A stretch of 20,652 nt of DNA from positions 1 through 20,652 of IMG/VR virus record IMGVR_UViG_3300002223_000040; one strand, given 5' to 3'. A program made the translations under genes and the position numbers. This DNA comes from a virus. Shown in pieces: positions 1,265-20,652 of the stretch; the stretch's first letter is position 1, and the number at the start of each line of letters is the position of its first letter. A model generated the notes under the pieces. It saw only the letters and a program-made list of their open reading frames with translations. It was not told the DNA's origin and did no database searches.

Positions 1265-4246
1265 TCATGCCGCATCCGGAACAATCGCGGTAATCACCGC
1301 GCCAAGTTCTGTCCATGCTCTAAGGATCCACGTATCCGCGGCAATACACGTCACCTCAAACATCGTGGTAGCGGGGATAGCCGCCTCGTTTGTACCATCA
1401 GAGTCAACGTTGTTGATTGTCGCGCCACTCCCAGCGGGAGTACGCATCTCACAACCAGTTGCTCCAATATAACCAGTGATGACATACCCCACCACAGCTG
1501 TTGGAAGAGTGATGATTGAATTTGCATCTGCACCCGCTGTTACAGCCACGAACCTTTCTCCAGCATTGATAAGACCCGTCGTCAGTCCGTCCGCCGTCGC
1601 AGTAACTGCTGATGCGGAAGCCTGAAACCCAGTCGTAAAGGTTGCCGCTCCAGTAAAGGTTGACGTTCCAGCAACGCTAAGGTTTCCATCTGAAACAGTA
1701 ATGTCTCCAGCGTTAAGGGTGAGAGCAGACGTTCCAGAGGCTGTTCCAGCAATCACCGTTGCTCCATACCGTCCGACAGTGAAGTCAGCAGCAGCCCCGT
1801 CATAACACTGGATGTATTTACCAGTTGTCAGCGTTGCCTCAACTGCCTCAAGAGAAAGCAATGTCCCAGTAGTAAGAGCTGTACCCACAATATGAGCAAC
1901 GGTTCCTGCTTCAGTGGTATTAGCTTGCACTTCCAAGAAACCAACACGGCTGGTTGAAGTGAAGTTACCTGTTGCGGTGAACGAAATTGCACCGTTCGTT
2001 GCAATCGCACCCGCGGTGCTGCTCGTTGCTCGAATAAGTGAACCAGAAGTAAGACCCGTAGTTGATGTGACTTGAAGGCCAACACCGGTCGTCATCGCGC
2101 CAAGAGAGATAAACTCCATGCCTGTCCCCGTGTACGCGCCAGTGGTAACAAGTTTTAAGGCATTCCCCGCAGTAGCAGCAGTCAAGTCAACCTGTACACC
2201 AATACCACCTGTTGAAAGAGCAGCAGCAGAGAGGTTGACACCCACGCCAGCGGTACTCATTCCGTCTACAATCACGCTCACCACCTTACACGCACCTGTC
2301 GTTGTTGGAGACTTAATGCGAAGCATCTCGCCAGTGTATCCAGTGGTAAAACCTGAATTTTCGACATTCAACACCGTAGACGTAAGTTGAGCGGCTGCAG
2401 TAGTCTTGAAGTTGACCAGTGTCCCCGTTCCAACCAACGCAGATGCTTGAACATCGAGCACACCAGCGTTTGATGTGGATGTGAATACTCCAGCATGAGT
2501 AATACTCACGATACCATTCGTTGCAATAATCCCCGTACCACTTGCGGTAACACGAAGCAGGCCACCGGTCGTCATTGCTGATGTGCCGTTGGATAACTGC
2601 ATTCCGATACCAGTCGTAAGGGCGTCCGCGACGAGGTTAAATACGGTTCCTGCGGTGGTATCGTTTGCCTTTACTTCAACAAACCCACCATCTACGGCAG
2701 ATGTCGAAGTAAATGCACCTGTATGTGTGAAGGAGATAATACCATTCGTCGCAATTGCGCCTGTTCCCTGCGCCGCCACTCGTATCAACGACCCCGAAGT
2801 CATCGCTCCGCCTGAATTTGCAATGTTCAAACCAATACCGGTCGTCAATGCGTCGACAGACAAATCCACCGCAGTACCACCTGATGTGATCCCGTCCGCA
2901 AGGATGTCTACGACTTTACACGCGCCGGTCGTGGTAACAGACTTAATTCGTACCATTGAACCTGTGTAGCCGGTTGTAAATCCTGAAGCCTCCACGTTCA
3001 AAATGGTATTCGTTAGCTGTGCCGCGGCAGTGGTCTTCAAATTGACCAATGTGCCCGTACCGACAAGACCAGATGATTGCACATCGAGTAGCCCTGCGTT
3101 TGAGGTAGACGTGTACGCTCCTGTTGAACGAATCGAGACAACACCATTTGTAGCAACTGCACCTGTTGTACCTGTGGATACTCTAAGCAAGCTCCCTGAT
3201 GTCAACGTCGTTGAGGTAGATGCAAGACTGATACCAATACCGGTTGTCAACGCGTCAAGTGCCGCGGCGTCAATCGCTGTGCCTGTCGTCATAGACGACG
3301 CACTGATATGGAGGATTTTACCCGCGGCAAGCACATCCGAGGCCGTCAATCGCAAAAGCACTGTTTCATCGTTTGCGGCAGTTGCGATTTCATTCAACAC
3401 TGCGCTCGTGTTTGTCGTTGCTGTTGAGGCAATGTTCAACAAACGTCCTGTTGCGGTATGAACCGCAGAAGACGATGTGATATTGAGCACCAACCCATCA
3501 GTCACCGCATTTGCCACCATGTGGATGCCTTTTCCTGTCGTCAGAGCTGCAAGTGGGAGGTAGAATGCCGTCCCAGTTGTGAGTCCAGAAGGAGTCAGTG
3601 TGAGGAATGAAGAGGTGGTGTTTCCAGTAAATGCACCAGAACCTGCTAATACAAATACCGAAGCGGTCGTAGCTGTGTCATTCGTAACAGAGAGGGTGGC
3701 TGCATTATCCGCGTCAGTAATCGTAAGTGAACCATCTGATGCAACCATATCACCCGCGGTAAGGGTGAATGAATCGCTCCCTGCGTCTCCTGCGGCAGTA
3801 ATCAAATTAAATACTGCGTCTCCAACTTTACTCACCGACCACGTGTTTGACGTTCCGTTGATGTCTTTTCCGGTTCCAACATTGGTAATCTGTATAAGAT
3901 GACCTGTACCTGCGCCGGTAGCGGTAAACGTCACACCATTATTTGACGCATGTGTGAGGTCAAAGGTAAGCGTTGTGCTTGCAATAGTTAATGTTTTATC
4001 TCCTGCATAAACGCCATCCCAAGTAGCAGAAGACACCGTTCCGGCGGCTCCGATGGTAGTTACAGTAGAACCATTTTTATAGATAAGTTCGCCACTACTA
4101 TTTACATACAAATAGTAATATCCCGATGCCGATGTTGGCACAGTATTAACTGCGTCAAACAAGATAACTGCATCTTTTACGCTATTAACCGCTTGAAGGT
4201 ATAAACCCTTCAACCCTGTCATATTTTTTCCATTTTTTGTAGGCAT
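1265..4246 (-). CDS. Large repetitive fiber-like virion protein (993 residues)
   Basis: This is the largest gene in the window. Composition is dominated by Thr, Ser, Gly, Ala and Val with short beta-strand-sized blocks, as in phage fibers and beta-helix adhesins. Residues about 215-815 are built from diverged repeats containing ALTTGIG, LTSGSLLRV, GA(I/V)ATNG and FTSTS; the ATNG element occurs at about 365, 500, 575 and 750. Residues 332-455 and 542-665 are near-copies at an exact offset of 210 residues. The start (MPTKNGKNMTGLKGLYLQAV) may be a short attachment region. The last 100 residues carry a TLP..VVGYVITGYIGATG...INN...F.C.A..W pattern that I associate with C-terminal domains of phage virion proteins. 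Its position after the capsid gene supports a head or tail fiber. The receptor is unknown. Confidence 0.8.
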   Translation of the reverse strand: MPTKNGKNMTGLKGLYLQAVNSVKDAVILFDAVNTVPTSASGYYYLYVNSSGELIYKNGSTVTTIGAAGTVSSATWDGVYAGDKTLTIASTTLTFDLTHASNNGVTFTATGAGTGHLIQITNVGTGKDINGTSNTWSVSKVGDAVFNLITAAGDAGSDSFTLTAGDMVASDGSLTITDADNAATLSVTNDTATTASVFVLAGSGAFTGNTTSSFLTLTPSGLTTGTAFYLPLAALTTGKGIHMVANAVTDGLVLNITSSSAVHTATGRLLNIASTATTNTSAVLNEIATAANDETVLLRLTASDVLAAGKILHISASSMTTGTAIDAAALDALTTGIGISLASTSTTLTSGSLLRVSTGTTGAVATNGVVSIRSTGAYTSTSNAGLLDVQSSGLVGTGTLVNLKTTAAAQLTNTILNVEASGFTTGYTGSMVRIKSVTTTGACKVVDILADGITSGGTAVDLSVDALTTGIGLNIANSGGAMTSGSLIRVAAQGTGAIATNGIISFTHTGAFTSTSAVDGGFVEVKANDTTAGTVFNLVADALTTGIGMQLSNGTSAMTTGGLLRVTASGTGIIATNGIVSITHAGVFTSTSNAGVLDVQASALVGTGTLVNFKTTAAAQLTSTVLNVENSGFTTGYTGEMLRIKSPTTTGACKVVSVIVDGMSTAGVGVNLSAAALSTGGIGVQVDLTAATAGNALKLVTTGAYTGTGMEFISLGAMTTGVGLQVTSTTGLTSGSLIRATSSTAGAIATNGAISFTATGNFTSTSRVGFLEVQANTTEAGTVAHIVGTALTTGTLLSLEAVEATLTTGKYIQCYDGAAADFTVGRYGATVIAGTASGTSALTLNAGDITVSDGNLSVAGTSTFTGAATFTTGFQASASAVTATADGLTTGLINAGERFVAVTAGADANSIITLPTAVVGYVITGYIGATGCEMRTPAGSGATINNVDSDGTNEAAIPATTMFEVTCIAADTWILRAWTELGAVITAIVPDAA

Positions 4247-20031: not shown

Positions 20032-20226
20032 ATGAATGAGAAATTTTCTATTTGGGAGCTAGTAAAAGGGATGTTTTTTGTTAGTCTTATTGGGTCTCTT
20101 TTCCTTTGGGTTACTTTCTCTTTTTTTATAAAAGATGAATTGGAGCAGATCACAAAAATAGACGTACCAAATGTTACTTCACCAGTGACAAGTACTTATA
20201 ATAACTATGAACCAACAAATCCTTGA
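20032..20226 (+). CDS. Single-pass membrane protein, unknown (64 residues)
   Basis: Starts at ATG 20032. Residues about 11-34 form one hydrophobic transmembrane segment (VKGMFFVSLIGSLFLWVTFS), followed by a charged and then Thr/Pro/Asn-rich tail (KDELEQITKIDVPN...). Size and a single span could suit a holin- or spanin-like lysis protein, a membrane anchor or a superinfection-exclusion factor. No endolysin is nearby to support lysis, so I leave it open. Its 3' end overlaps the next gene by 20 bases. Confidence 0.65.
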   Translation: MNEKFSIWELVKGMFFVSLIGSLFLWVTFSFFIKDELEQITKIDVPNVTSPVTSTYNNYEPTNP

Positions 20227-20515
20227 ACAATACGACGAACTGTGGGATCAAAAATGCGGAATAGCGGACGGAGTTACTGCGACATTTAGCATCCAGCCTG
20301 AAAGAGAGGAAATAAAACAATTCCTCCTCGCCGCCCTCAACCAAAAAGATGCTGAATGGCGGGAGAAGATTGAAGGTTTGAGGATGGAAGAAAGACCCAT
20401 GTCAGAACATCTGAGTACCGCTACTGAAATTGTCCAAGAAGATAGGGACGAAAATTACAACAAAGCTATCCGAGAAATCAACACCAAAATAGACCAAATT
20501 CTACAAGGAGAATAA
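20207..20515 (+). CDS. Unknown acidic helical protein (102 residues)
   Basis: Starts at ATG 20207, overlapping the upstream membrane-protein gene. Highly charged and helical: LEQYDELWDQKCGIADGVTA, then REEIKQFLLAALNQKDAEWR, a central EGLRMEERPMSEHLSTATEI and a C-terminal YNKAIREINTKIDQILQGE. No family recognised. It is followed 17 bases later by the Cys-X-Ala repeat gene. Confidence 0.6.
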   Translation: MNQQILEQYDELWDQKCGIADGVTATFSIQPEREEIKQFLLAALNQKDAEWREKIEGLRMEERPMSEHLSTATEIVQEDRDENYNKAIREINTKIDQILQGE

Positions 20516-20532
20516 ACACTAACATAAAATAT

Positions 20533-20652
20533 ATGTCGGACAACAATACTAACTGCCGTGCCTGCCGTGCCTGCTATGCCTGCTATGCCTGCTATGCCTG
20601 CCGTGCCTGCTATGCCTGCTATGCCTGCTATGCCTGCCGTGCCTGCTATGCC
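20533..20652 (+). CDS. Cys-X-Ala tripeptide-repeat protein, partial (C-terminus beyond the right edge)
   Basis: ATG 20533 in an AAAATATATG context; residues MSDNNTN are followed by at least 11 tripeptides Cys-X-Ala, with X Arg or Tyr in the order R R Y Y Y R Y Y Y R Y. From the second unit on, the order repeats every four units (12 residues, 36 bases). Every Cys is TGC, every Ala GCC, Arg CGT and Tyr TAT, with no silent variation, so the array is young or homogenised. A Cys at every third position would suit a metal-rich or disulfide-linked fibre, but I know no matching family with certainty. The frame is open at the window end, and the composition is far more GC-rich than its surroundings. 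Confidence 0.65.
   Translation, partial: MSDNNTNCRACRACYACYACYACRACYACYACYACRACYA
20554..20652 (+). repeat. 9-bp tandem repeat array with 36-bp higher-order period
   Basis: Eleven units of TGC(CGT or TAT)GCC in perfect register, reaching the end of the window. CGT units recur every fourth unit after the first. Read on the minus strand it codes Gly-X-Ala (X Ile or Thr), a collagen-like pattern, but the plus-strand frame has a native-looking start. Confidence 0.9.

What the first reader, a model, noticed from the sequence alone, without database searches (positions are those of the whole stretch)
20533..20652. Strict Cys-X-Ala repeat protein with a 12-residue higher-order pattern at the window edge
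Seen directly: after seven residues the frame becomes 11 perfect Cys-(Arg/Tyr)-Ala units with no silent variation, with Arg every fourth unit. Inference: a Cys every three residues could make a metal-loaded or disulfide fibre or a phage-encoded surface or stress protein. The identical codons argue for recent expansion or gene conversion, and the array may be variable in length. Alternatively the minus strand would read as a collagen-like Gly-X-Ala domain, as seen in phage fibers; its frame stays open into 20533 but meets a stop at about 20457.
Basis: partly seen in the sequence, partly recalled or inferred. Interest (0 to 1): 0.78.

Follow-up and report, generated by a model that had tools for sequence, protein, structure and literature searches.

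The report
Phage Cys-triplet repeat protein, cut short
The window ends inside a real phage gene whose protein begins with a cysteine every third residue; relatives in other phages show it is the cysteine-filled version of a family of repeat proteins that share a conserved tail domain and have no known function.

Summary
Confirmed: 20533-20652 (+) reads MSDNNTN followed by 11 Cys-(Arg/Tyr)-Ala units, and the record stops inside the array. It is a gene start, not a shadow frame. A 27-base piece of the array recurs in two other uncultured phage contigs that carry a full gene (205 aa): MSDSNKN, about 23 Cys-x-Ala/Ser triplets, then a 130-aa C-terminal domain. That domain occurs in more than 20 further phage proteins. 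Most of these carry S-x-G-V-x-x hexapeptides instead of Cys triplets. Counted back in threes from a conserved junction, their core reads S-V-S-V..., while the Cys members read C-C-C-C. So the Cys triplet is a Cys-core version of a period-3 repeat, probably a narrow beta-solenoid. An insect antifreeze protein uses the same every-third-residue-inward code, but relatedness is not shown. The variable residue is N/D/Y/R/K in both forms. The gene lies in the replication/early module, away from the tail genes; the minus-strand collagen reading has no support. The 12-residue pattern is a local 36-bp duplication without statistical support as a conserved feature. Function is unknown; a host-interaction scaffold is most likely. 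The unit count (11) is a lower bound at a contig end.

The parts
20533..20652 (+). 5' part of an open reading frame: MSDNNTN + 11 Cys-x-Ala units, cut by the contig end
   Evidence: homologous complete gene L003:612-1229
20533..20553 (+). N-terminal leader MSDNNTN (relatives: MSDSNKN in L003/L005, MSDTSCEN in L017, MSNTSCRS in L029)
   Evidence: start context '...AT ATG' without Shine-Dalgarno is that of most genes in this window
20554..20652 (+). array of 11 Cys-(Arg/Tyr)-Ala triplets, codons TGC-(CGT/TAT)-GCC
20559..20652 (+). 36-bp period (CRA-CYA-CYA-CYA), 2.6 copies, 100% identical: local duplication, contig ends inside it
   Evidence: no significant four-unit period by unit shuffling
20207..20515 (+). 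upstream neighbour, 102-aa protein of unknown function, 17 bp before the start codon
   Evidence: no convincing family hit, no relative found in viral contigs
20455..20652 (-). antisense open frame GIAGTAGIA...; judged a shadow of the + strand codons
   Evidence: (the same shadow lies behind the true gene in L003)

Best explanation
Shown for the family, and inferred for the window from its array and start: the frame is the start of a + strand phage gene of a family built of (i) an N-terminal tandem array with a core residue every third position and (ii) a conserved ~120-aa C-terminal domain, here lost beyond the contig end. The window, L003/L005/L006, L017/L018 and L029 have Cys in the core positions (C-x-A, C-x-S, C-x-G); most other members have Ser and Val/Ile alternating there (S-x-G-V-x-x). 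Inferred (about 0.55): the array folds as a narrow beta-solenoid with the core residues stacked inside and the variable residue (Asn/Asp/Tyr/Arg/Lys) on the outer face; Cys acts first as a small core residue and may be cross-linked when oxidised. Inferred (about 0.3): the protein is an early-module accessory protein whose rigid, length-variable arm binds a host or phage target (in the manner of pentapeptide-repeat proteins) and carries the C-terminal domain. The array changes length by duplication of whole 9-bp units.
For: A 27-base exact match of the array in two other contigs with a full-length gene; a third contig also breaks inside the array. The C-terminal domain is shared by more than 20 phage proteins, by one gut phage record and by three bacterial genome contigs. 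Counting back in threes from the junction [SC]-x-[GAS]-V-x-x-x-[ILV]-F gives CCCC... or SVSV... in the 21 aligned members, with few exceptions next to the junction. Variable positions use the same residues in hexapeptide members (N 77, D 50, Y 40, E 21, K 20) and Cys members (N, Y, D, R). L029 has the same pattern with different codons (TGC-TAC/GAC-GGT), so the Cys spacing is kept at protein level. Neighbours in the window are Dam methylase, DnaB helicase, helicase loader and PD-(D/E)XK nuclease on +; relatives sit by VRR-NUC and HNH genes. The beetle antifreeze protein has inward residues at positions 2, 5, 8 and 11 of a 12-residue coil (PMC8038014) and is a weak profile hit (1ezg, E 0.54).
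Against: AlphaFold2 models give the C-terminal domain fairly well (pLDDT mostly 60-90) but the repeats poorly (pLDDT 30-54), so the solenoid is not shown. No solved fold matches; the antifreeze hit may be composition only. No repeat-length signature of a given coil size was found. In the window itself the C-terminal domain is not present, so membership rests on the array and the first seven residues (upstream-plus-start similarity to L003, p = 0.02). No functional data exist.
Confidence: 0.6

Rival explanations
1. The Cys triplets are a metal- or Fe-S-loaded, or disulfide-locked, chain (overlapping CxxC pairs), for redox or metal handling during infection.
For: Every pair of neighbouring cysteines forms CxxC; 23 such units in the L003 array; Cys is otherwise rare in this phage (0.7% of codons).
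Against: Relatives with the same C-terminal domain and the same register have Ser/Val in all those positions, so the architecture does not need thiols; no zinc-ribbon, metallothionein or ferredoxin family match for the array.
Confidence: 0.2
2. The coding strand is the minus strand: a collagen-like Gly-x-Ala tail-fibre segment.
For: The frame GIAGTAGIA is open for 65 codons to the edge; PHROG 'collagen like minor tail' models match 11 of 21 relatives, though on their + strand repeats.
Against: The complete relatives L003, L005, L017 and L029 encode the array on + fused in frame to a conserved domain. The hexapeptide relatives have an obligatory Gly only every sixth residue, which is not a collagen pattern. 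Minus-strand structural genes lie several kb away. In many other phages similar DNA arrays have their gene in another frame (AEQ, PQA, QAQ), which shows that open shadow frames are expected.
Confidence: 0.03
3. Assembly or low-complexity artefact: the array at the contig end was made or lengthened by the assembler.
For: The contig ends inside perfect 36-bp repeats; L006 also ends inside its array.
Against: Two other contigs run through a complete, more varied array into the C-terminal domain. The start codon context fits the genome. The number of units in the window remains unproven.
Confidence: 0.07
4. The variable middle codons (AAT, TAT, GAT, CGT) are made by a diversity-generating retroelement that mutates adenines.
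For: All unit differences change the amino acid, and the codons could derive from AAT by changes at A.
Against: No reverse transcriptase in ten records including the window, although all may be incomplete. Asp is always linked to the Ser codon TCC (p about 2e-5), which points to duplication of whole units.
Confidence: 0.02

Closest known systems
PHROG families phrog_15341 and phrog_14105 (phage proteins, unknown function)
   Same: phrog_15341 matches the Cys-triplet part of the L003 protein (E 5.5e-8, residues 7-92); phrog_14105 matches the C-terminal domain (E 1.8e-4)
   Different: The window fragment itself was not scored against them; neither family has a function or, as far as found here, a described repeat code
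DUF7666-hexapeptide proteins of uncultured and gut phages (PF24703)
   Same: Same C-terminal domain after S-x-G-V-x-x-like repeats (L007, L023, L030, L033, L036, L170)
   Different: These have an extra N-terminal DUF7666 domain and no Cys core; the window and L003 start directly with the repeats
Flavobacterium phage FL-1 hypothetical protein and L260
   Same: N-terminal Cys triplets CSDCSGCSRC...
   Different: A different C-terminal domain (CETT..CRAGWVV); in FL-1 the annotated genes do not follow the Cys-triplet frame
Beetle hyperactive antifreeze protein (TmAFP, 1EZG; TCTxSxNCxxAx)
   Same: Inward residue every third position, Cys/Ser/Ala core, tandem repeats (PMC8038014; weak hit)
   Different: Secreted, disulfide-bonded, TxT ice-binding face; no evidence of homology
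Pentapeptide-repeat proteins (MfpA, Qnr)
   Same: Repeat beta-helix idea: small core residues, variable outer face (review PMC8145042; MfpA/Qnr details from general knowledge)
   Different: Period 5 with A(D/N)LXX, not period 3

Membership tests
Phage period-3 repeat + C-terminal domain family (L003/L029/L014 type) | N-terminal tandem repeats with a C, or S/V, core residue every third position | tested here: met
   11 Cys in register in the window; family register
Phage period-3 repeat + C-terminal domain family (L003/L029/L014 type) | Conserved C-terminal domain (..W.DMP...DYIKSLPEFDA..F..ITG) | not testable with these tools
   The window record ends inside the array; present in L003 and the family members
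Phage period-3 repeat + C-terminal domain family (L003/L029/L014 type) | Short leader MS(D/N).. directly before the repeats in the Cys subgroup | tested here: met
   MSDNNTN against MSDSNKN, MSDTSCEN, MSNTSCRS
Collagen-like phage fibre | Gly every third residue on the coding strand | tested here: not met
   + strand is C-x-A; relatives have an obligatory Gly only every sixth residue. It is met only in the minus-strand shadow frame
Collagen-like phage fibre | Gene in the tail module or next to it | tested here: not met
   Gene lies in the + strand module after DnaB; terminase, portal, capsid and the 993-aa protein are on -
Beetle-type antifreeze beta-helix | 12-residue TCTxSxNCxxAx unit with TxT face | tested here: not met
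   No Thr in the array; only the period-3 core code is shared
Pentapeptide repeat protein | Tandem A(D/N)LXX pentapeptides | tested here: not met
   Period is 3; no Pfam pentapeptide hit
Metal-binding Cys-rich protein (metallothionein, zinc ribbon, ferredoxin) | Family signature of Cys spacing | tested here: not met
   Only a single-residue Fer4_2 hit at E 6.9 and none at E 0.1; metal content itself not testable
Diversity-generating retroelement target | Reverse transcriptase and template repeat in the genome | tested here: inconclusive
   No RVT_1 in ten records, which may be fragments

The most novel reading that the evidence does not exclude
A new type of triplet beta-solenoid in phages: a period-3 core code in which Ser-Val hexads and all-Cys triplets are interchangeable, giving thiol-filled, length-variable binding arms that have been joined to at least two unrelated C-terminal domains and passed between unrelated phages.
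Probability: 0.35. Interest if true: 0.65.

Novelty: new variant of a known kind. Interest (0 to 1): 0.42.

Why it matters
Repeat proteins of this kind are carried by many uncultured phages and are easily missed or mislabelled: open shadow frames, 'collagen' hits, no annotated gene following the array in FL-1. The register shown here (S-V-S-V and C-C-C-C on the same period-3 grid, same junction, same C-terminal domain) gives a simple rule to recognise them and a direct structural prediction. A run of more than 20 stacked cysteines in one phage protein that is probably cytosolic would be a very unusual protein core.

Tried and rejected
Short-peptide searches of the window fragment found nothing. 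No window relative in named phages at DNA level, and no relative of the upstream neighbour. A scan with the generic pattern (TGCNNTGCC)n gave 119 stretches: those read were mostly antisense of AEQ, PQA or QAQ repeats and unrelated; only the already known contigs of L002 and of L006/L080 are of this type. A scan with a C-x-G pattern gave 120 stretches; only L252 (same contig as L029) has the C-terminal domain, and L260 has triplets with another domain. Pfam 'Plasmodium_HRP' and PDB 9e5c hits to the array are compositional. PADLOC hits are weak and scattered. Structure comparison gave one uncharacterised siphovirus protein only. Repeat-lag tests for a 12- or 18-residue coil gave no clear answer. 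Literature: no paper found on DUF7666 or on such repeats. A shared genome background with L003 was checked and not found in the parts held: the terminase is absent from those records and only distant hits to a few window proteins appear, so the gene seems shared between unrelated phages.

Full report
Observation. The record is a 20,652-base virus contig and is all there is. Shuffled sequence never gives more than two such units in a row. The 36-bp super-repeat is real as DNA (2.6 perfect copies), but shuffling the units gives p = 0.07, and the same four-unit lag is not significant in L003 (p = 0.15) or L029. I treat it as a recent local duplication.

Relatives. A 27-base stretch of the array occurs exactly in two other IMG/VR contigs. 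There the gene is complete: 205 aa, MSDSNKN, about 23 triplets mostly of four kinds (CNA, CYA, CRA, CDS), then a 130-aa domain. A third contig breaks inside the array as the window does. Using the C-terminal domain, more than 20 further phage proteins were found, one unannotated gut-phage record and three bacterial genome contigs. Most carry S-x-G-V-x-x hexapeptides, some after an N-terminal DUF7666 domain. L017/L018 and L029 carry C-x-G triplets like ours, in different codons.

The rule. The 21 aligned members share a junction of the form [SC]-x-[GAS]-V-x-x-x-[ILV]-F. Counting back from it in threes, hexapeptide members read S,V,S,V,S,V... and Cys members C,C,C,C..., apart from one or two positions next to the junction in L017 and L029. 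The residue after each Ser/Cys is drawn from the same set: N, D, Y, E, K in 234 hexads, N, D, Y, R in L003 and D, Y, C, R in L029. So the Cys triplet is the same repeat with both core positions filled by Cys. Inside L003 the Asp codon always travels with Ser (6 of 6, p about 2e-5), which means that whole 9-bp units are copied.

Strand. In L003/L005, L017 and L029 the + frame continues into the conserved domain, so that frame is the gene. The minus Gly-x-Ala frame exists behind the array in L003 too and is a by-product. A wide scan showed how misleading such DNA is: many phages with (TGCNNTGCC)n have their gene in another frame (AEQ, PQA, QAQ repeats). The start at 20533 has the T before ATG and the lack of a Shine-Dalgarno sequence seen at most gene starts in this window.

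Setting. Terminase, portal, capsid and a 993-aa repeat protein lie on the - strand. The + strand from 13.7 kb carries a PD-(D/E)XK nuclease, Dam methylase, helicase loader and DnaB, then small unknown genes and ours. Relatives sit near VRR-NUC and HNH genes. This is an early or accessory position, not a tail position; expression timing itself is inferred. The phages of the window and of L003 look otherwise nearly unrelated in the parts held, so the gene seems to move between phages.

How it may work. A core residue every third position is the code of the beetle antifreeze beta-helix (inward positions 2, 5, 8, 11; PMC8038014), and that protein is a weak profile hit (E 0.54). I infer a narrow solenoid with stacked Cys. 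The AlphaFold models do not confirm it: repeats are at pLDDT 30-54, the C-terminal domain mostly 60-90, and no solved fold matches. A metal- or disulfide-loaded chain remains possible, but relatives keep the same architecture without Cys. The biochemical role is not known; I favour a host-interaction scaffold at about 0.3.

Novelty. The sequence family is present in PHROGs as unknown function, and Cys triplets exist in Flavobacterium phage FL-1 with another C-terminal domain, where the annotation does not follow the Cys frame. What is new here is the link between the Ser-Val and Cys forms and the period-3 rule. Verdict: a real gene of a known but uncharacterised kind, with an unusual Cys-core variant.

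Noticed in passing
window, whole: Most gene starts have T directly before ATG and no Shine-Dalgarno sequence (2 of 23 with one), a start style that may point to the host group.
   Followed up: partly
window 1265-4246 (-): 993-aa protein rich in Gly/Ala/Thr/Ser with recurring 'LTTGIG..L' and 'LTSGSLLRV' stretches, no Pfam family; possibly a repetitive fibre.
   Followed up: no
L294:2497-3201 (Flavobacterium phage FL-1, KY421186.2): A long Cys-triplet frame (CSDCSGCSRC...) whose frame the annotation does not follow; the conserved C-terminal part continues in another frame annotated as a separate hypothetical protein, which may mark a frameshift.
   Followed up: partly
L260:8746-9393: Cys-triplet array joined to an unrelated C-terminal domain (CETTHCRAGWVVHLAGEPGYALE), so the triplet arm is modular.
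   Followed up: partly
L039-L155: Many phages carry (TGCNNTGCC)n arrays that are the antisense of AEQ, PQA or QAQ repeats; their C-x-A frames are shadows.
   Followed up: partly
L003:1283-1353: A tRNA gene with undetermined anticodon directly after the Cys-triplet gene.
   Followed up: no
L029:3979-4893: A transposase-like 304-aa protein close behind the Cys-triplet gene, judged by eye only.
   Followed up: no
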